Shown: positions 485 to 16,923 of the stretch, piece by piece
How the letters are laid out: each line of letters begins with the position of its first letter
Numbering within the stretch: the first letter of the stretch is position 1
NCBI GenBank assembly: GCA_018814635.1
Contig: JAHIYV010000102.1
Span: forward strand, 1-17,013
Direction: 5' to 3'
Length of the DNA stretch: 17,013 nt
Source of the DNA: Patescibacteria group bacterium
GTDB taxonomy: Bacteria > Patescibacteriota > Minisyncoccia > Phycocordibacterales > JAGLOS01
The notes under the pieces: model-generated
Database searches by the model: none
Seen by the model: only the letters and a program-made list of their open reading frames with translations
What the model was told of the DNA's origin: nothing
Program-made: the position numbers and the translations under genes

Positions 485-3400
485 ATGACTCAAAACTTTA
501 TTCATCTTCATACTCATTCCCACTATTCGCTTCTTGATGGATTGTCAAAAATTGACGATTTAATTGCGCGAGCAAGAAAAAATAATATGCCAGCTCTTGC
601 GATTACCGATCATGGTAGTCTTTATGGGGCTATTGAATTTTATAAAAAAGCAAAGAAAGCGGAGATTAAACCAATTCTTGGTGTTGAAGTATATGTGGCA
701 ATTAAATCTCGTCATGATAGAAATCCAGGAATAGACAATAAACGGTTTCATTTGACTTTGTTGGCGAAAAATAATGTGGGCTATAAAAACTTAATACGCT
801 TGGTTACACTTTCAAACACAGAAGGATTTTATTACAAACCAAGAGTAGATACAGAAATTTTAAGACTATACTCAGAAGGAATTATCTGTCTATCAGGATG
901 TTTTACTGGAGAAATATCCCGTGCTTGCCAAGCGAATGATTTGGAAAAGGCCGAATGCATTGCGCGAGAATATCAAGAAATTTTTGGCGCAGAAAATTAT
1001 TTTATAGAAATAGAACATCATCCGAAAATTGAAGGTTTTAACGAAACGAAACAAAGACTTATTGAATTAGCGCGACGACTTGATATGCCTTTAGTTGGCA
1101 CGCAAGATTCTCACTATATTGATCCAAGTGACGCTCTTGCTCAGGATGTATTACTTGCGGTCGGAACTGGTGTAGATATTCATACGAAAAATCGCCTCAC
1201 AATGTCGGGTGAAGATTTTTCTTTTATTGATACAAAAACGGCAATGAATTATTTCAAAGACACACCGGAAGCCGTTACAAATACTCAAAAAATTGCAGAT
1301 ATGTGTGAAATTGAACTTGAATTAGGTAATTGGACTTTTCCAAAATTTGAAATTAAAGAAAACTCAACTCATGATGAAGAGTTGCACCGTCTTGCATACG
1401 AAGGAATTAAAAAAAGAGGGTTAAAAGAAGACAAAGAATTACTAGATCGCATTAATTATGAATTAAAAGTAATCAAAGACAAGGGCTATTCCGTTTATTT
1501 TCTTATCGTAGAAGACTTGATTAGATACGCGAGAGAAAATAATATCTTTACAACAATTCGTGGCTCTGTTGCTGGCTCTATGACAACATTTCTTCTTGGT
1601 ATTACCAATGTAAACCCTTTTGAATATAAACTTCCCTTTGAACGATTTCTTAATCCCGAGAGACCTAGCGCGCCAGATATTGATATGGATTTTGCAGACA
1701 ACCGTCGTGATGAAGTTTTAGATTACGCACGAGAAAAATATGGTAAAGATAAAGTCGCCCAGATAGGAACTTTTGGTAAAATGATGGCAAAAGGATCTAT
1801 TCGCGATGTAACACGCGCGCTCGGACATCCTTATTCTATTGGCGACACACTAGCAAGTTTAATACCTCTTGGCTCACAAGGATTTCCAATGACAATTAGT
1901 AAAGCATTGGAAATAGAACCCGAATTGAAAACATCTTATCAAAAAAACACAACAACAAAAGAAATTGTTGATTTAGCAAAAAAACTAGAAGGTTGCGCAA
2001 GACACATTTCTGTTCATGCAGCTGGAGTTGTTATCTCGCCAACCTCTCTTTATGATTTTGTTCCGACACAGTTTGATCCCAAGGGTGGCAAAATTATTAC
2101 TCAATATGATATGTACAGTGTTGAAGATGCAGGACTTATTAAGTTTGATTTTCTTGGTATTAAAAATTTAGCAATACTGGATGATGCTGTACGACTTGTA
2201 AAAAAATTTCACGATATTGATATAGATATTGAAAATATCCCTGTTGATAATAAAAAAACTTTTGCTATGCTAGCGCGCGGCGAAACGATAGGACTTTTCC
2301 AATTAAATGGCGCAGGAATGACCCAATACTTAAAAGAACTTAAGCCCACTGTGATTTACGACATAAATGCAATGGTTGCTTTGTATCGTCCAGGACCAAT
2401 GGAAGCTATACCGCAATATATAAAAAGGAAACATAATCCCAGACTAGTTACATATTTAGATCCGCGACTAAAAGATATTTTGGATCAATCTTATGGGATT
2501 ATTACATATCAAGATGATGTGATGCTGATCGCTATTCATCTCGCTGGATATTCGTGGTTGGAAGCAGATAAACTTCGCAAAGCGATGGGAAAAAAAGTTC
2601 CTAAATTGATGAAAGAACAAAAAGAAAAACTGCTTAAAGGTTTTATTAAAAATGGATTAAGCCAAGAAAAAGCTGACAAATTATGGCGCCATATTGAGCC
2701 CTTTGCCGCCTATGGATTCAATAAAGCGCATGCCGCAAGTTATGGGCGAGTCGCGTATCAAACTGCGTATATGAAAGCCAATTACCCTGCTGAATATATG
2801 TGCGCAATATTAACAGCCGAATCAGGAGACACCGATAAAATTGCAGAAATTATAACAGAGTGCGCAAGAATGAAACTACCTGTTTTGCCACCAAATATTA
2901 ACGAGAGTTTTAGTAATTTTACTGTGATTAAAGGAGCAACCATTCAAGAAGACAAAATACGCTTTGGGTTAAATACAATTAAAAATCTTGGCTATGATAT
3001 TGCAAAAGCGATAATTGACGAACGAAAAGAAAACGGACAATATATATCATTTTCAAATTTTCTTGATAGAGTGCATCATAAAAATTTAAATAAAAAATCC
3101 TTAGAGTCTCTTGTAAAAAGTGGGGCTATGGATACTTTTGAAGAGCGAGGTAAATTGCTCGGCAATGTGGAAAACGCTCTTGAATATAATAAATATATTA
3201 TTAAACAAAAAGGATCTAATCAAGCATCTTTATTTGGTGACTCCACTGAATCAACCCTTCTTTCTTTTCAACTTAAAGATAGTCCCACTGTAACAAAAAA
3301 AGAAATGTTAGCGTGGGAAAAAGAGCTACTCGGACTTTATATTTCAGGACACCCATTGGACGCGTATCGAGAAAAAATAGAAAAAAGAGGCGCGACAATT

Positions 3401-3679
3401 AAACAACTGCTTAAAAACGCGCGCGAAGGTACAATCGCGATTGCTACTGGCGTACTTGAAGAAACAAAAGAAATTATGACAAAAAAAGGAGAGCAAATGG
3501 CATTTGTAAAAATTGCTGATTTTACAGACTCATTAGAAATTGTATTATTCCCAGCAGTTTTTTTGAAATATAAAAATATTATACGAACAGAACTATGTAT
3601 TGTTGTAAAAGGAAAAATATCGCAAAGAAATGGCAATGTAAGTTTATTAATAGATGTCATCAAAAAAATGGAAGAGTAA
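485..3679 (+). CDS. dnaE: DNA polymerase III subunit alpha (DnaE), 1064 aa
   Basis: This is the catalytic subunit of the replicative DNA polymerase. An N-terminal PHP domain opens with HLHTHSHYSLLDG (from residue 7), and further metal-site motifs follow: TDHGSLYG, GVEVY, SGCFTGE, IEIEHH and TQDSHY. The C-family polymerase core has the paired aspartates in PDIDMDF (D400, D402) and the third in KFDFLG (D555), plus YRPGPM and YGFNKAHAASYG. QASLF (913-917) fits a beta-clamp binding pentapeptide, and an OB fold (ATGVLEETKE onward) ends the protein. It is slightly shorter than E. coli DnaE (1160 aa). The frame is open upstream to 353, but that stretch crosses tRNA-Leu and both promoters. The ATG at 485 is preferred because the conserved PHP motif starts directly after it. 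There is no Shine-Dalgarno sequence. Confidence 0.97.
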   Translation: MTQNFIHLHTHSHYSLLDGLSKIDDLIARARKNNMPALAITDHGSLYGAIEFYKKAKKAEIKPILGVEVYVAIKSRHDRNPGIDNKRFHLTLLAKNNVGYKNLIRLVTLSNTEGFYYKPRVDTEILRLYSEGIICLSGCFTGEISRACQANDLEKAECIAREYQEIFGAENYFIEIEHHPKIEGFNETKQRLIELARRLDMPLVGTQDSHYIDPSDALAQDVLLAVGTGVDIHTKNRLTMSGEDFSFIDTKTAMNYFKDTPEAVTNTQKIADMCEIELELGNWTFPKFEIKENSTHDEELHRLAYEGIKKRGLKEDKELLDRINYELKVIKDKGYSVYFLIVEDLIRYARENNIFTTIRGSVAGSMTTFLLGITNVNPFEYKLPFERFLNPERPSAPDIDMDFADNRRDEVLDYAREKYGKDKVAQIGTFGKMMAKGSIRDVTRALGHPYSIGDTLASLIPLGSQGFPMTISKALEIEPELKTSYQKNTTTKEIVDLAKKLEGCARHISVHAAGVVISPTSLYDFVPTQFDPKGGKIITQYDMYSVEDAGLIKFDFLGIKNLAILDDAVRLVKKFHDIDIDIENIPVDNKKTFAMLARGETIGLFQLNGAGMTQYLKELKPTVIYDINAMVALYRPGPMEAIPQYIKRKHNPRLVTYLDPRLKDILDQSYGIITYQDDVMLIAIHLAGYSWLEADKLRKAMGKKVPKLMKEQKEKLLKGFIKNGLSQEKADKLWRHIEPFAAYGFNKAHAASYGRVAYQTAYMKANYPAEYMCAILTAESGDTDKIAEIITECARMKLPVLPPNINESFSNFTVIKGATIQEDKIRFGLNTIKNLGYDIAKAIIDERKENGQYISFSNFLDRVHHKNLNKKSLESLVKSGAMDTFEERGKLLGNVENALEYNKYIIKQKGSNQASLFGDSTESTLLSFQLKDSPTVTKKEMLAWEKELLGLYISGHPLDAYREKIEKRGATIKQLLKNAREGTIAIATGVLEETKEIMTKKGEQMAFVKIADFTDSLEIVLFPAVFLKYKNIIRTELCIVVKGKISQRNGNVSLLIDVIKKMEE

Positions 3680-9370: not shown

Positions 9371-10342
9371 ATGTTTAACAATAAAATACGCGTGGGTGTA
9401 TTGCGTGGTGGCGTAAGTTCAGAATACGAAGTTTCTCTACAAACAGGAGAAACCGTACTTTCTGCTTTACCGACCGATAAATATAAAACCCTTGATATTC
9501 TTATAACAAAAGATGGGCAGTGGCATTTGAATGGTTTTTCCGCAAATCCCGCGCAAGTTATTAATAGTGTTGATGTTATTTTTAATGCTTTGCATGGGCA
9601 ATATGGCGAAGATGGAAAAGTTCAGCAGATATTTGAGATGTTTAAGATTCCGTATACAGGGTCTGCGGTTGTACCGTCTGCTATTAGTATGAATAAAGGA
9701 CTTGCAAAACATTGTTTTGGTTTTCACAACACCAAAACTCCCAAAAGTAAAACAATAAAAATTGGAGATAATGTGTCGGCAGAAATCTCTGCTTTGTTGG
9801 ACACACTTCCTCCTCCATATATTGTAAAACCAATTTCTGGTGGATCTTCCGTTCTCATGGTCGTTGCGCGGAATTTTGATGAGCTTTTGCGCGCGACCAA
9901 CAATATTTTAGAAACAAACCAAGTCGCGCTTGTGGAAGAATATATACAAGGTAGGGAGGTAACTTGCGCAATTGTGGATAGTTTGGAAAAACCAAAACTT
10001 TTTCCTTTGCCACTATTGGAAATTATTACACCAGACAATGATGAGATATTTAGTTATGACACAAGATATAAAGGTGAGGCCACGCAAATGTCTCCAGCCA
10101 ATATAGAAAAAAATATTGCAGAACAAATTAGACAAATAGCAATGGATATGTACAAAAAAATTGGTTTGAGGCATTACGCAACTGCAGATTTTATTGTGTC
10201 TCCATCAGGAATATATTTACTTGAATTTAACAGCTTGCCCGGATTTTCAGAATTTTCCGCAATGCCAAAAATACTTAAAGCGGATAACTTGGGACTGGAC
10301 GAATTTTTTGATCATATTGTTACTTGCGCTTTGGGCAAGTAG
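9371..10342 (+). CDS. ddl: D-alanine--D-alanine ligase family protein (Ddl1), 323 aa
   Basis: This is an ATP-grasp ligase of the Ddl family, which joins two D-alanines for the peptidoglycan stem peptide. Visible motifs are LRGGVSSEYEVSL (N-terminal substrate loop), LHGQYGEDGKVQ, YIVKPISGGSSV (ATP lysine and glycine loop), VEEYIQGREVTCA, the omega-loop FSYDTRYKGE, and the metal-binding EFNSLPG (E285, N287) with D273. The catalytic arginine normally found in the xxARxDF motif (R255 of E. coli DdlB) is threonine here (HYATADF, T271). The glycine loop reads GSSVLM rather than GSSVG. The enzyme may be weak, or specific for a different second substrate. It is the first gene of a co-directional set, 52 bases before the hydrolase. 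Confidence 0.88.
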   Translation: MFNNKIRVGVLRGGVSSEYEVSLQTGETVLSALPTDKYKTLDILITKDGQWHLNGFSANPAQVINSVDVIFNALHGQYGEDGKVQQIFEMFKIPYTGSAVVPSAISMNKGLAKHCFGFHNTKTPKSKTIKIGDNVSAEISALLDTLPPPYIVKPISGGSSVLMVVARNFDELLRATNNILETNQVALVEEYIQGREVTCAIVDSLEKPKLFPLPLLEIITPDNDEIFSYDTRYKGEATQMSPANIEKNIAEQIRQIAMDMYKKIGLRHYATADFIVSPSGIYLLEFNSLPGFSEFSAMPKILKADNLGLDEFFDHIVTCALGK

Positions 10343-10394
10343 TAAAATAGCGCATGCAAGTTTTCTTTTTTGAATTACAAGTAAAAGCAATCTT

Positions 10395-11153
10395 ATGTTA
10401 AAAAAAGATATCATTATTCAAAACTTAAAAACTACTTATTACCAAAGCGAGGTCTTTAATAAAGATAATGCTTTGATTTTTTTGCACGGGTGGGGGAGTG
10501 AACCACAAATTTTTAACGATTTACTAAATCAAAACCGTAACTCTATAGCTATTGCCTTGCCCGGGTTTGGTGGAAGCGAGACGCCAAAGCGAGCATGGTT
10601 TGTTAGTGATTATGCGAATTTTTTAAAACAGTTTTTAGAAAAGTTACAAATAAATAAACCTATTTTAATAGGACATTCTTTTGGAGGAAGCGTAATTATT
10701 AAATATTGCGCGCATAATAAAATTGCTAAACAAATCATTCTTATTAATAGTGCTGGTATTAGAAAAAAAGGAATTAAAATTTTCTTGTATTTAATTTTAG
10801 CTAAAATTTTTAAGACAATTTTTTTAATTCCTGGAGTAGCTTTGCTTAAAAACAAAATAAGAAAAAGGTTTTACTCTCATATCGGTGCTACGGATTATCT
10901 TAATGCGGGTCCTCTTAAACAAACTTTTCAAAATATCATCAACGAAGATTTAAGTGAGGATATGATAAAAACAAAAACAAAAACAACTTTAATTTGGGGA
11001 GAAAGAGACCAAGAAACACCACTAAAAAATGGTTTGTTAATGCAGAGTTTAATTCCACAAGCGGAAATGTTTATCGTTCGGGAAGGCAAACACTTTATGT
11101 TTGACAACGAAGAGTTTAATAGAATATTTTTCAAACAAATCAATGCTAATTAA
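10395..11153 (+). CDS. Alpha/beta-hydrolase fold protein, 252 aa
   Basis: All parts of a serine hydrolase are visible: HGWG oxyanion motif (31-34), nucleophile elbow GHSFGG with S95, acid D205 in WGERDQETP, and H233 in GKHFMF. A lysine-rich, hydrophobic cap region (about 121-160) lies between strands and could touch the membrane. There is no signal peptide. The substrate is unknown. Its place between ddl1 and murF, overlapping murF by 11 bases, suggests a role linked to the cell envelope or precursor metabolism. A generic esterase is equally possible. No Shine-Dalgarno sequence precedes the ATG. Confidence 0.85.
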   Translation: MLKKDIIIQNLKTTYYQSEVFNKDNALIFLHGWGSEPQIFNDLLNQNRNSIAIALPGFGGSETPKRAWFVSDYANFLKQFLEKLQINKPILIGHSFGGSVIIKYCAHNKIAKQIILINSAGIRKKGIKIFLYLILAKIFKTIFLIPGVALLKNKIRKRFYSHIGATDYLNAGPLKQTFQNIINEDLSEDMIKTKTKTTLIWGERDQETPLKNGLLMQSLIPQAEMFIVREGKHFMFDNEEFNRIFFKQINAN

Positions 11154-12510
11154 AAATCTTCTTTATGTCCTTCAAAGTGAAAACTATAATCTTCCGCGTT
11201 TTTGGAGGTTTGTTTACACACATTTGATATGGTGGAAATTAGAAAAAAGACAAAAACTTAAGTGGACACCTAAAGCTATTTTTTTATATAGCGGGACGGT
11301 ATCTATCATATTAATTTTACTCGCGCTGTCTTATTTTTTCTGGAAATCAAAAGGATTAATTTTATTGTTCATAATTCTTATACCATTTTTACCCGTGTTG
11401 CTGGGCTTGGTTGTATTGTTATTTACGCCTTTAGATTTTTATCTAAAAGGAAAATTAGTAAAACAAGCGCAAAGTATATTATTAAAAACCCAAATCACAG
11501 TTATTGGTATTACTGGCAGTTATGGTAAAACTAGTGCCAAAGAAATCCTAACCACAATTTTAGGAGAAAAATACAAAGTTTTGAAAACTCCAGGGAATGT
11601 TAACACAGACACAGGAATAGCAAACTTTATTAAAACAAACGCTTCGTTAATTGCCACCGCTGATATTTTAATCGTAGAAATGGGCGCATATGGTCCGGGA
11701 GAAATTACAAAAATTTGTAAAATGGTTTGCCCCCACTATTCTATTTTAACGGGAATAAACGAGACCCATATTGAAAGGTTTAAAACTCTAGATAGAATTA
11801 TAAAAACAAAATTTGAGTTAATTGAAAATACTAAAAAAATGGCGTTTTTGAATTTTGACAATGAAAATATTAAAAATAATTATTTGCGTTTTGACAAAGG
11901 TCATTGTATTAGAGTAACCGCGCAAGAAGTAAGTAATATAAAAATTTTAGATGAGTTTAAGGGGATTGCTTTTCAGTATCAAGGAGTTAATTTTCAAACT
12001 CAACTTTTGGCAGAACATAATATCATTTTAATTTTACTATGCGCGCGAATTGCTCAAGAATTAAAAATGGACTTAACACAAATTCGTGATGCTGTGAAAA
12101 AAATAAAGCCCATTATTCACCGCCAACAATCTGTATACAATACCAATACTGATATTCTGGTTATTGATGATAGTTATAATGCTAACTTTAATGGCATAAA
12201 GAGTGGTTTAAAAGTACTTCAGAGGGCAAAAGGCAGAAAAGTGGCACTTACTCCTGGGGTTGTGGAACTTGGCGATATGACAAAAGAAGTGCATAATAAG
12301 ATAGGAATATTATATACTCAAAATGTTGATTTGGCTCTTTTAATAAAGACACAAGGAACAGATTATATGGTGGAAATATTCAAGCAAATAGGATTCAAAA
12401 ATTATAAAATATACCAAAACACCAAAGAAGCGCATGATGATCTGGGTAATATATTACAAAAAGGGGATACAATTATTTTCCAAAACGATTTAACAGATAA
12501 TTATTTTTAG
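11143..12510 (+). CDS. murF: MurF-like Mur ligase with two N-terminal membrane segments, 455 aa
   Basis: MurF adds D-Ala-D-Ala to the UDP-MurNAc-tripeptide. The Mur-ligase core shows the P-loop GITGSYGKTS (K129), EMGAYGPGE (169-177), NETHIERF (H199), a likely carbamylated lysine (K213, TKFELIE), and the MurF hallmark DDSYNAN (332-338) with VELGDMTKEVH in the C-terminal domain. Residues 45-67 and 71-94 are strongly hydrophobic and form two predicted membrane helices. Classic cytosolic MurF has none, so this enzyme is probably tethered to the inner face of the membrane. A TTG start at 11101 would extend it by 14 residues, but the ATG at 11143 overlaps the hydrolase stop by only 11 bases and is preferred. 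It is flanked by two ddl genes. Confidence 0.87.
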   Translation: MLIKNLLYVLQSENYNLPRFWRFVYTHLIWWKLEKRQKLKWTPKAIFLYSGTVSIILILLALSYFFWKSKGLILLFIILIPFLPVLLGLVVLLFTPLDFYLKGKLVKQAQSILLKTQITVIGITGSYGKTSAKEILTTILGEKYKVLKTPGNVNTDTGIANFIKTNASLIATADILIVEMGAYGPGEITKICKMVCPHYSILTGINETHIERFKTLDRIIKTKFELIENTKKMAFLNFDNENIKNNYLRFDKGHCIRVTAQEVSNIKILDEFKGIAFQYQGVNFQTQLLAEHNIILILLCARIAQELKMDLTQIRDAVKKIKPIIHRQQSVYNTNTDILVIDDSYNANFNGIKSGLKVLQRAKGRKVALTPGVVELGDMTKEVHNKIGILYTQNVDLALLIKTQGTDYMVEIFKQIGFKNYKIYQNTKEAHDDLGNILQKGDTIIFQNDLTDNYF

Positions 12511-12533
12511 GACTTAACTAAAATAGAAATTTT

Positions 12534-13745
12534 ATGGATACAGACAATAAAAAAATAAATATAGGGGTATTTTTTGGTGGCAAAAGTCCAGAACACGATG
12601 TTTCAATTACTACTGGGCAATTTACCATTGTAGGATTAAAAAAATTGGGATACTCTGTAACTCCTATTTATTTAGACAAACAAGGCAAATGGTATATTGA
12701 TGAAAAACTTGGTTTTCTAAAAACTTTTCTTGAAACAGAAAAAAAAGAGAACTATTTACACGTGCTCACTCCTTCTTTTTTTGACATTAATTCATCTGTG
12801 GCTAGTCAAAAAATTGTTTTTCAAAAACAAGGTTTAATACGCAAAAAAATAATTATTGATGTTGCTTTTCCCACCTTTCATGGGTTAAATGGAGAAGATG
12901 GCACAATTCAAGGATTGTTTGAATTATTAAATGTGCCGTTCGTAGGCTGTGGGGTTGCTTCTTCCGCTTTAACTATGGACAAAATTTTCACCAAATTAAT
13001 TTATAAAAGTAAAAATATCCCTACCCCTGATTTTCTATCTTTTAATAGTTTTGAGTGGGAAAAAAACGAAGATGATATATTACAAAAAATAACAAAAAGT
13101 TTGAAATGGCCAATTTTTGTAAAACCAGCGCGACTTGGATCTTCCATAGGAATTACTAAAACGCAAAATCACGAAGAATTAAAAATGGCTTGCGAATTAG
13201 GTTTTCACTATGACGAACGAATTATTGTTGAAGAAGCGGTGGAGAATTTGATAGATTTAACTTGCTGTGTTATAGGCAATGAATACACTCAAACATCTTT
13301 AGTACAGGAAACATCTTTCACAGAGGGTCTTTTAAGTTATGAAGACAAATATCTAAAAGATGGCGGCACGCAAACTGGGCAAGCGCAAAATAGTATAATT
13401 ATTCCCGCGCGTATTGACGAAGAAACTACAAACAAAATCCGCGAAATGTCCGCGCAAATTTTCAAATTGTTTGATTGTTCGGGAATTGCCAGGGTGGATT
13501 TTCTCTACAACAAACAAATAAAACAACTTTACGCAAACGAAGTGAATACTTTACCCGGAACCCTTTATCATCATTTATGGGAAAAGAGCGGTTTAAAATT
13601 TGAAGAACTTTTAGAAAAATTAATAAACTGGGCGCAAAAAAAACATACTACAAAAAACAAAATAATCTACTCATTTGATTCTAATTTGTTACAAATCACC
13701 AAAGCAATCAAATTGGGACTTAGAAATAATTCATCCGCTGACTGA
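12534..13745 (+). CDS. ddl: D-alanine--D-alanine ligase (Ddl2), 403 aa
   Basis: This second Ddl-family ATP-grasp enzyme starts 23 bases after murF. Its motifs are complete: FFGGKSPEHDVSI, PTFHGLNGEDGTIQG, FVKPARLGSSIG, VEEAV, the omega-loop SYEDKYLKDGG, catalytic ARVDF (R320, D322) and metal-binding NEVNTLPG (E336, N338). The lysine-tyrosine pair in the omega-loop is typical of D-Ala-D-Ala rather than D-Ala-D-lactate ligases. It is longer than most Ddl proteins, with an enlarged N-terminal domain (residues 65-110) and a C-terminal tail. It keeps every catalytic residue that Ddl1 lacks, so it is the better candidate for the main Ddl. The gene ends in TGA, directly before an 8-bp tandem duplication. 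Confidence 0.93.
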   Translation: MDTDNKKINIGVFFGGKSPEHDVSITTGQFTIVGLKKLGYSVTPIYLDKQGKWYIDEKLGFLKTFLETEKKENYLHVLTPSFFDINSSVASQKIVFQKQGLIRKKIIIDVAFPTFHGLNGEDGTIQGLFELLNVPFVGCGVASSALTMDKIFTKLIYKSKNIPTPDFLSFNSFEWEKNEDDILQKITKSLKWPIFVKPARLGSSIGITKTQNHEELKMACELGFHYDERIIVEEAVENLIDLTCCVIGNEYTQTSLVQETSFTEGLLSYEDKYLKDGGTQTGQAQNSIIIPARIDEETTNKIREMSAQIFKLFDCSGIARVDFLYNKQIKQLYANEVNTLPGTLYHHLWEKSGLKFEELLEKLINWAQKKHTTKNKIIYSFDSNLLQITKAIKLGLRNNSSAD

Positions 13746-14030: not shown

Positions 14031-14157
14031 TTATCCAAGCAGGCTGTCTAAAAACCCCAATTTTGACGCTTTTTTGAAAATTTTTTGGCTAATCTTAGCC
14101 CTGCAAATTTCAAAAAACCGAGTTTTTAGACAGCCTGCAAGGAAAGCCCTTGGATAA
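14031..14157. repeat. Palindromic element F, related to element A
   Basis: gcaggctgtctaaaaac (14039-14055) is the exact reverse complement of 14122-14138. An outer pair, ttatccaag (14031-14039) with cttggataa (14149-14157), extends the stem. Inside, ggctaa/ttagcc (14086-14091 with 14095-14100) and ttttttgaaa-type arms continue the pairing. The arm resembles that of element A (agcctgtttaaaaac). No coding capacity is seen. Confidence 0.75.
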
Positions 14158-14478: not shown

Positions 14479-15512
14479 ATGAATAATTTTAAAATCCGAG
14501 AAATTGAAAATGGTGAAAATTTTGACCCAAGTATTTTTTGTGAAAATGTTCCATTTACGCAAGCGAGTTTTTATGGAGATTGGCAAAAAAATTTAGGCAG
14601 AATAGTAAAAAGATTTTTAGTATCTAGTGATAAAGAAATTGTCGCTTATTTTCAAATAATCAAATATCCGCTTTTGCTCGGCAAAAGCTATTTTTACATA
14701 CCTTATGGACCAATTACAAAAGATTTTTCTGCAGATTTTTTTACTTATATCAGACAAGAATTAAAAAAAATTGCTAAAACCGAAAATGTTGTTTTTGTCC
14801 GTCTTGATTTTACTCCACCAATTCCAAATGATATTCTTTCAAAATTTTTTACGAAAGCGCCATTTTATACCTATCATTCTGCGTATTTTCAACCACGAAT
14901 GGAATGGTTTCTTGGTTTAGAAAAATTAGAAAACGAGATACTTATGGAAATGTGGAAATGCACGAAAAAACCCGTTACTCAATACGATTAGCAGGTAAAA
15001 AAGAAATAACAACAGAAATTATTACTGAGGATTTTGAAAAATATTTTGAAGTTTTTTATAAATTAATGACAGAAACAGCAAAAAGAAATGGGTTTAGTCT
15101 TCACCAAAAAAATTATTATAAAAATATTTTTGAAAGTCTTTCTAAAATAAATTCTTATTTATCAATAGCAAAATATAAAGAGAAAATCCTCTGTATTTAT
15201 CAGGTGGTTATTTATGGAGAAGTAGCCAACTATATTTATGGTAGCTCAAGCAACGAAGAGCGAAATCGAAATGCAACCTATGCAACTCACTGGGAAGCGA
15301 TTAAGTATGCAAAACAGCTTAATTGTAATTATTATAACTTTGGTGGCATAGAAAAGGACAATTTATTAAATAAAGGAATGGTTACTTTAACTTTATATAA
15401 AAAGAAATTTGGAGGAAAGGAGATCGCACACTCTGATTTTTTCGATGTTGTTGTAAGTTCATTTTGGTATCGTCTTTATAATTTTAGAAAACTAATAAAG
15501 AAAATTAAATAA
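14479..15512 (+). pseudogene. FemAB/FemX-type aminoacyltransferase, frameshifted by an 8-bp tandem duplication
   Basis: FemAB-family enzymes use aminoacyl-tRNA to add bridge amino acids to the peptidoglycan stem peptide. The first half (14479-14991) has VPFTQASFYGDWQKNLGRIV and YFYIPYGPI. The second half (open from 14904 to 15512) has YIYGSSSNEERNRNATYATHW and YYNFGGIEKD, both family hallmarks. The halves lie in different frames. The cause is visible: tggaaatg occurs twice in tandem (14945-14952, 14953-14960). Removing one copy joins the frames as ILMEMHEKTRYSIRLAGKK, matching the family's MHEKTRYNIR-type motif and giving a normal 341-aa protein. It may be a recent null allele, a switchable locus, or an assembly error. 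The start is ATG 14479. An in-frame ATG at 14389 lies inside the structured leader. It is the last member of the cell-wall cluster, after a long repeat-filled gap. Confidence 0.85.
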
Positions 15513-15805: not shown

Positions 15806-15882
15806 GGGCCCGTAGCTCAGTTGGCTAGAGCGCCTGTTTTGCACTCAGGAGGTCGCAGGTTCAATTCCTGTCGGGTCCACCA
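15806..15882 (+). tRNA. tRNA-Ala (anticodon TGC), CCA encoded
   Basis: The acceptor GGGCCCG pairs with CGGGTCC and includes the G3·U70 pair that marks alanine tRNA. Discriminator A and CCA follow (15879-15882). The anticodon arm CCTGT-TTTGCAC-TCAGG gives TGC, and the pair closing the anticodon loop is a T·T mismatch. The T arm is GCAGG-TTCAATT-CCTGT. The 3' end overlaps, on the opposite strand, the end of the damaged recombinase reading frame, so this tRNA may mark an insertion site. Confidence 0.95.
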
Positions 15883-16923
15883 AACGAAACATTGTCGGAA
15901 TTAAGAAAATGGAGCGATTTTGCGGGAGCCAAAATCGCGCTGTCATTTTTTTCAAAACCCTTTCCGCCTACGGCGGAAGCCGTGAATTCCCAAAGCTCCC
16001 CCCAATTGCATGAAAGCGTTTTGTCTTTGAGAATAGGGTTAGAGCCGATTTTTTGGAAAAACTCTTTCCATGCGAAATAATTTTCGCCTTTTTCCAAAAT
16101 AACGGCTTCTCTCAAAGACAAAACGAAACTCCGCAAGGGTGAAGAAGCGAATACTTGGAGCTTCTGCAAGACCTTTTGAGAATTTTTACGAGCTTTGCGA
16201 AGTAAAAAGTCCAAAAGGTGTACAGAACCTGTAAGGTTCGACCCAATTTTTTCTCTGTTGCCCAAAATCCTTAAAACTCTCCTCAAACTTTGCCTTCTGA
16301 CGAAGGAGAAGGTCTTTTCGTTGTAGATAAATATCGCGTTCAATGTCGCCGTCAAGATAAATGGAAACAAGTTTGTCCAGCTTCTCCTTCGTCTCGGAAA
16401 GTTTGGTTTTAAGATTTTGGGCAACACTTCCTCTTTCGGAAATTGACTCTTTGTCCCACAAGTCAATTTGCTTTTCCATGTTCTCAATTTCTGAAAGAGG
16501 AAGCGACACTGATTGAAGCAGATTTTTTGCTTGCGAAATGAGTGCGGAAGAAGATAGATACGGCTGACGACAAACACCTTTCTTTTTGGTACAGCGATAG
16601 TAAGTATATTTCGTGCCAAAACGATTTGTCGCATATTGAGCCGTAATCATACTTCCGCACTCACCACACCGAGCAAACTGTGCAAAGGGAAAATGATTTG
16701 GTACTTTTTGCACGCGAGGACGAGATTTTTTCGCAAGCATTTTTTGGACTGCTTCAAACAGTGTCGGAGAAACAATTGGCGCAAAGCTTCCGTCGTAATA
16801 CTCGCCTTTGTGATAGGTAAAGCCGAGATATACACGATTTGAGAGCATGCGAGCGACGGAAGCTTTGGCAGGTGGCGTTCCCTTCGTACTCACGCCGTGA
16901 TCCGCCAAAAAGTCCGTCGAGGC
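15861..16923 (-). pseudogene. Large serine recombinase, C-terminal part, frameshifted and rearranged
   Basis: Only the regions after the catalytic domain are present. Reading from about 16923 down, DFLADHGVSTKG and ARMLSNRVYLGFTYHKGEYYDG belong to the Recombinase domain. A zinc ribbon (CGECG ... YYRCTKKKGVC) and a charged coiled-coil stretch follow, then NWVEP. There the frame ends at TAA (16186-16188). The adjacent frame carries on with LREAVILEKGENYFAWKE and KIGSNPILKDKTLS, the usual tail of this family, and stops at 15861 inside the tRNA-Ala 3' end. A one-base shift near 16225-16245 would join them. No serine-nucleophile catalytic domain lies in the window. Upstream of DFLADH the frame stays open to the window edge, but its translation is not recombinase-like, because that DNA encodes the missing preceding segment on the other strand. 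The gene is visibly richer in G and C than its neighbours, which suggests foreign origin. Confidence 0.8.
16017..16125. repeat. Nested palindrome inside the recombinase 3' region
   Basis: Three concentric perfect stems are visible: 16 bp (16017-16032 with 16110-16125, core tttgtctttgag), 11 bp (ttttggaaaaa 16051-16061 with 16089-16099) and 6 bp (gcgaaa 16072-16077 with tttcgc 16082-16087). Both arms read as the same protein motif when translated from opposite strands (QKIGSNPILKDKT on minus, SKITASLKDKT on plus), so this looks like a diverged inverted duplication. Another stem, ttccgcc-tac-ggcggaa (15962-15978), lies just beyond. Confidence 0.6.

What the first reader, a model, noticed from the sequence alone, without database searches (positions are those of the whole stretch)
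14945..14960. Exact 8-bp tandem duplication splits the FemAB-family gene
tggaaatg is present twice in a row. Deleting one copy restores one 341-aa frame through the conserved MHEKTRYSIRLAGKK motif. Nothing else in either half looks decayed, so the event is recent, reversible (phase-variation-like slippage) or an assembly artefact. A switch in this gene could change peptidoglycan cross-bridges in a small-genome cell.
Basis: partly seen in the sequence, partly recalled or inferred. Interest (0 to 1): 0.72.

Follow-up and report, generated by a model that had tools for sequence, protein, structure and literature searches.

The report
Cell-wall gene broken by small duplication
In the assembled genome of an uncultured small-genome bacterium, an exact 8-base tandem duplication shifts the reading frame of a FemAB-type cell-wall gene; it looks like an ordinary recent gene loss, and no sign of a built-in on/off switch was found.

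Summary
TGGAAATG stands twice in a row at 14945-14960, and the FemAB-family frame breaks exactly there. Both pieces match Pfam FemAB, and the closest intact relatives (77% identity in the N part, 70% in the C part) read through this point in one frame without a second copy, so the duplication is derived and causes the break. Beyond the repeat itself nothing supports a switch: 0 of 11 inspected relatives have a 4-12 bp tandem repeat at the site, and exact 8-bp repeats are as common in the genus-mate. The gene is patchy (51 of 397 genomes of the order hold a homologue), and three other copies seen here are broken in other ways. 'Nothing else looks decayed' is only partly right: in the closer of two comparisons the first two thirds keep 72 of 72 nearly invariant columns, but the last third has changed 8 of 32. 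No MurE, whose gene follows femAB in 9 of 12 close relatives, was found in this assembly. Best explanation: a young loss-of-function mutation in a dispensable gene. Without reads, an assembly error or a mixed population cannot be excluded.

The parts
14945..14960 (+). exact 8-bp tandem duplication TGGAAATG x 2; no microhomology at its edges
14479..14991 (+). frame A: N part of the FemAB-family gene; native through residue 158, then 12 out-of-frame residues and a stop
   Evidence: PF02388, E 1e-6
14904..15512 (+). frame B: C part of the FemAB-family gene (homology starts about 14958)
   Evidence: (PF02388, E 3.7e-17)
14965..14970 (+). run of six A just after the duplication, a possible but short slippage site
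   Evidence: read
15806..15882 (+). tRNA-Ala gene downstream of femAB, where 9 of 12 close relatives have murE next to femAB
9371..13745 (+). upstream peptidoglycan-precursor genes: two D-Ala-D-Ala ligases (9371-10342, 12534-13745), an alpha/beta hydrolase (10395-11153) and a MurF-like Mur ligase (11101-12510)

Best explanation
A one-off 8-bp tandem duplication arose inside a FemAB-type peptidoglycan-bridge gene of an uncultured bacterium whose order includes Ca. Taylorbacteria. Because 8 is not a multiple of three, translation from the start at 14479 leaves the native frame after residue 158 and stops at 14991, so the C-terminal half of the enzyme is not made (frame break shown; loss of function inferred). 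The gene is probably dispensable here: it is patchy in its order, broken in other ways in other genomes, not beside murE as in most close relatives, and no murE was found in the assembly, so the stem-peptide residue that FemAB enzymes decorate may not be installed in the usual way (inferred). It is a young pseudogene.
For: Exact duplication at the frame break. In 23 of 24 named homologous loci one frame runs through the site, and 0 of 11 inspected have a tandem repeat there. Homologue in 51 of 397 genomes of the order, the window's included. Other broken copies: in-frame TAA in G011, deletions in L066, frameshift with deletions in G159. MurE query: E <= 1.6e-56 in 28 of 30 other genomes, only 2.5e-8 in G000, in a gene that NCBIfam calls MurC. 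Mur ligase domain: 2 matches in G000, 5 in genus-mate G001. Eight of 32 nearly invariant columns changed in the last third.
Against: The first two thirds show no decay at all (0 of 72 nearly invariant columns changed), which fits artefact, polymorphism or a very recent event equally well. With 14 relatives no excess change is seen in the C half either. The draft is in 143 contigs, so murE may lie in a gap. Few Mur ligase matches are not peculiar to G000: G009 has 1, and G007, G025 and G027 have 2.
Confidence: 0.65

Rival explanations
1. Assembly or consensus artefact: the cells carry an intact gene and the second copy arose in assembly, for example by joining two contig ends without merging a short overlap.
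For: A draft in 143 contigs. The first two thirds of the gene show no decay. Many single-lesion pseudogenes in public genomes are assembly errors (PMC11017572, abstract and passages). Exact tandem repeats of 9 bp or more are about twice as dense in the G000 sample (24 in 141 kb) as in the G001 sample (21 in 248 kb) (counts).
Against: Exact 8-bp repeats are as dense in G001 (14 in 248 kb) as in G000 (9 in 141 kb). In the G000 sample 15 of 62 repeats of period 7-40 lie inside ORFs of 150 aa or more. A search for other frame jumps with G001 proteins gave one candidate, which is two neighbouring receiver genes; but that search also missed the femAB break itself, so it is insensitive.
Confidence: 0.17
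2. Reversible switch: spontaneous duplication and loss of 8 bp turn the gene off and on in the population, like the sequence duplications in pneumococcal capsule genes.
For: An exact duplication in an otherwise well kept reading frame; reported precedents in pneumococcal capsule genes (Waite et al. 2001 and 2003, titles and one sentence on them seen in passages of PMC4022640).
Against: Only two copies; 0 of 11 relatives have a repeat at the site; no second form in the assembly; no record with one or two copies in viral contigs; other broken copies show unrelated lesions.
Confidence: 0.06
3. The product is still made: as two overlapping chains (frame B starting at the ATG at 14958, with GGAAA at 14946-14950 seven bases before it) or by slippage at the run of six A at 14965-14970.
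For: The ATG, the weak ribosome-site-like GGAAA and the A run are in the sequence. The break lies near the border of the two FemX domains (recalled; the C part matches FemX from residue 181 onward, starting at its residue 19).
Against: No split FemAB in the 26 order loci and 14 named loci (overlapping sets) where both halves match; no unusual RNA structure (z -0.5); six A is short for slippage (recalled).
Confidence: 0.04
4. The duplication is the target-site footprint of a mobile element that has left.
For: No microhomology at the edges; recombinase and small repeat elements nearby.
Against: The 98-bp element at 14040-14137 is flanked by 4-bp repeats in 3 of 3 copies read. No genome-wide search for elements with 8-bp target duplications was made.
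Confidence: 0.03

Closest known systems
FemABX family (Pfam PF02388; solved relatives FemX of 1ne9/4ii9 and lipid II:glycine glycyltransferase 6snr)
   Same: Both pieces match the family model above its cut-off; the C part matches FemX chains in the PDB; closest relatives are single-chain proteins of about 342-358 aa from Parcubacteria-type genomes.
   Different: Here the frame is broken; NCBIfam names no equivalog (C part 39.9 bits against a cut-off of 500, N part no match), so the amino acid it transfers is unknown.
Pneumococcal capsule genes with spontaneous sequence duplications (cap3A-type, cap8E, tts)
   Same: A perfect tandem duplication inside an open reading frame (titles and one sentence seen).
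   Different: Reversion and coexistence of both states are reported there (from the titles and recall); nothing of the kind could be seen here.
Single-lesion pseudogenes of Parcubacteria MAGs
   Same: Pseudogenes are 4.9% and 9.4% of coding genes in two MAGs of one study (PMC11188291, passages).
   Different: The lesion here is a tandem duplication; nothing else sets it apart.

Membership tests
FemAB family (PF02388) | match to the family model above its curated cut-off | tested here: met
   28.3 bits (N piece) and 62.7 bits (C piece), cut-off 24
FemAB family (PF02388) | one continuous reading frame for both domains | tested here: not met
   frames A and B differ; relatives are continuous
FemAB family (PF02388) | aminoacyl-tRNA-dependent transfer to the stem peptide | not testable with these tools
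   no assay; no NCBIfam equivalog reached
Phase-variable gene (slippage type) | repeat tract at the site, kept in relatives | tested here: not met
   0 of 11 relatives inspected have a 4-12 bp tandem repeat at the site
Phase-variable gene (slippage type) | both states present in one population | not testable with these tools
   no reads; one form in the assembly
Pseudogene | disabling lesion relative to intact homologues | tested here: met
Pseudogene | relaxed constraint along the gene | tested here: inconclusive
   0 of 72 columns in the first two thirds and 8 of 32 in the last third changed; 0 of 35 and 3 of 44 in the looser set

The most novel reading that the evidence does not exclude
A spontaneous, reversible tandem duplication acts as an on/off switch for a peptidoglycan-bridge enzyme in a candidate-phylum bacterium, so that one population carries two wall types; or the duplication has turned a one-chain FemAB into two overlapping, coupled chains.
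Probability: 0.08. Interest if true: 0.55.

Novelty: new member of a known kind. Interest (0 to 1): 0.15.

Why it matters
If it is the young pseudogene that it looks like, it adds one case to the patchy loss of a peptidoglycan-bridge gene in this order, with a possible link to a missing MurE that can be tested across genomes. If reads showed both forms, it would point to phase variation of the cell wall in Patescibacteria; a full-text search for 'Patescibacteria', 'peptidoglycan' and 'phase variation' together found 0 papers in the held library, which does not cover most subscription journals.

Tried and rejected
Tandem-repeat density as a sign of bad assembly: no difference for 8-bp repeats, but repeats of 9 bp or more are about twice as dense in G000 as in G001; in the G000 sample 15 of 62 repeats of period 7-40 lie inside ORFs of 150 aa or more, in the G001 sample 47 of 87. 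Not decisive.

Other frame breaks in the assembly: G001 proteins (469 ORFs) against the window and 20 of 143 contigs gave 62 hit bins and one candidate, two neighbouring receiver genes. The same scan did not flag the femAB break, since the genus-mate's FemAB is too distant, so its negative is weak. ORFs of the other fetched loci flagged only femAB and the serine recombinase of the window.

Viral contigs: no relative of the protein, no match to the two flanks of the site with a gap of 0-12 bases. RNA structure at the break: not unusual. Promoter-like sites: no more than in shuffles; terminator-like sites 2 against 1.3. N part against solved structures: no meaningful hit. The structure prediction of the C part had not finished at the last poll, so no model is used and no fold search was made.

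Two conservation tests gave different pictures, and both are reported: 14 of 34 aligned relatives, chosen at 45% identity or more; 12 relatives. The split of the C half was made after I had looked at the alignment, so the Fisher value of 4e-5 is descriptive only.

Matches below the best 30 were not examined one by one, except G159; some are short or weak (G048, G100, G253, G266, G322) or carry stops (G351).

Full report
Observation. The window is one whole contig (C38, 17,013 bases) of a 762,503-base draft genome in 143 contigs, estimated 95.9% complete and 2.3% contaminated. TGGAAATG occurs twice in a row at 14945-14960 and the 16-mer occurs once in the assembly. Frame A (14479-14991, 170 aa) and frame B (ending at 15512) both match Pfam FemAB above its cut-off, and relatives align to A up to the duplication and to B after it. 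Exact 8-bp tandem repeats are not rare (9 in 141 kb, 4.6 expected), but one that coincides with a frame break is very unlikely to be there by chance.

The duplication is derived. A scan of named genomes gave 24 homologous loci. In 23 of 24 one frame of at least 294 aa runs through the site: in 14 it matches both parts of the window's gene; in 9 it matches only the C part and holds at least 155 residues upstream. The 24th, L066, is broken by deletions. Of the 30 best loci of a scan of 397 genomes of the order, 26 match both parts in one frame, 2 match only the C part within one long frame, 1 is the window, and 1 (G011) has an in-frame TAA. The two sets overlap. The closest homologue is in Ca. 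Taylorbacteria RIFCSPLOWO2_12_FULL_43_20 (L053), 77% identical in the N part and 70% in the C part. Of 11 relatives whose DNA at the site I inspected, 0 have a tandem repeat of 4-12 bp. The bases before and after the pair (A and C) give no microhomology, which speaks against simple re-pairing of a slipped strand as its origin (inference).

Is the gene otherwise decayed? With 14 relatives of at least 45% identity, the window departs from 0 of 35 (N) and 3 of 44 (C) columns conserved at 90% in the others, within the range of intact relatives. With the 12 named relatives L053-L064 the window departs from 0 of 40 columns in the N part, 0 of 32 in the next 79 residues, and 8 of 32 in the last third; tested in the same way, L053-L057 have 0 to 2 departures there and L058-L064 have 2 to 7. 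Distances agree for the three nearest relatives: window-L053 non-synonymous distance is 0.134 in the N part and 0.244 in the last third, while L053-L055 is 0.205 and 0.106. Against the more distant L056 and L057 this contrast is absent. Synonymous distance to L053 is also higher in the last third (1.53 against 0.55), so a mosaic origin or a changed specificity is as possible as relaxed selection. The split was made after looking at the alignment; I give it as an observation, not as a test.

Patchy and repeatedly broken. A homologue of the C part is found in 51 of 397 genomes of the order, the window's included, and the Pfam family in 15 of 98 genomes, again with the window's. Besides the window and G011, G159 has a frameshift with deletions near a contig end and L066 has deletions. 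These lesions differ in kind and place, as ordinary loss would give.

Neighbourhood. In 9 of the 12 named loci L053-L064 a murE-like gene follows femAB directly. In the window femAB is followed by about 290 bases, a tRNA-Ala gene at 15806-15882 and, on the other strand, a broken serine recombinase. A MurE protein finds matches of E 1.6e-56 or better in 28 of 30 other genomes, but in G000 only one of 2.5e-8, in a gene that NCBIfam calls MurC. The Mur ligase domain is found twice in G000 (that MurC and the MurF-like protein of the window) and five times in genus-mate G001; other genomes with few are G009 (1) and G007, G025 and G027 (2 each). Where G001 and G024 have a Mur ligase right after the PBP gene, G000 has none in the 1 kb to the contig end. 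A MurG-type domain and three transpeptidase domains are present, and MraY and FtsW by my own reading. So a wall is probably made, but no ligase for the third stem-peptide residue was found. FemAB enzymes decorate that residue (recalled), so this gene may have lost its substrate; an assembly gap remains possible. The FemAB of genus-mate G001 is of another clade (31% and 35% identity in the two parts) and follows an aminotransferase-like gene (named by eye).

Mechanism. Shown: the frame shifts at the duplication; frame A keeps 158 native residues, adds 12 others and stops. Inferred: no full enzyme is made and function is lost. Most likely this is a recent, neutral or nearly neutral loss. In one study 4.9% and 9.4% of coding genes of two Parcubacteria MAGs were called pseudogenes (PMC11188291, passages). 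On the other hand many single-lesion pseudogenes of public genomes are assembly errors (PMC11017572, abstract and passages), and I give that 0.17; my own check of the assembly was insensitive. Reversible duplications have precedents in pneumococcal capsule genes (PMC4022640, passages), but beyond the repeat nothing here supports one. Rescue by a second start or by slippage, and a mobile-element footprint, remain possible and unlikely.

Verdict. A correct observation with an ordinary best explanation. Only reads can separate fixed mutation, artefact and mixture.

Noticed in passing
14040-14137; L046 1506-1603; L106 6681-6778: A 98-bp inverted-repeat element in three nearly identical copies in this genome, each flanked by an exact 4-bp direct repeat (CAAG, CTTG, CTCG) and, by my reading, each inserted in the arm of a hairpin.
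   Followed up: partly
about 16139-16228, minus strand: The serine recombinase at the contig end is broken by an insertion of roughly 90-100 bp that is related (73-75% identity) to sequence at C124, C20 and C10; four other recombinases of this genome have open frames of 493-557 aa.
   Followed up: partly
genome G000: C35 (L199), C88 (L200), C112 (L191), against G001: Only two Mur ligase domains found (MurC and a MurF-like protein) beside MurG and three transpeptidases; no MurE found, and none of the Mur ligase expected right after the PBP gene.
   Followed up: partly
9371-13745: Two different D-Ala-D-Ala ligase genes flank an alpha/beta hydrolase and a MurF-like ligase with hydrophobic N-terminal stretches; the second ligase has close relatives in only 3 of 64 other genomes (37-51% identity over nearly its whole length).
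   Followed up: no
L005 1492-2514 (G011); L211 1540-2165 (G159); L066 about 2590-3510: Three more broken copies of this FemAB gene, by a stop codon, by a frameshift with deletions, and by deletions.
   Followed up: partly
about 15190-15512: The last third of the window's femAB is unusually diverged at conserved positions and in both kinds of substitution; a mosaic origin is not excluded.
   Followed up: partly
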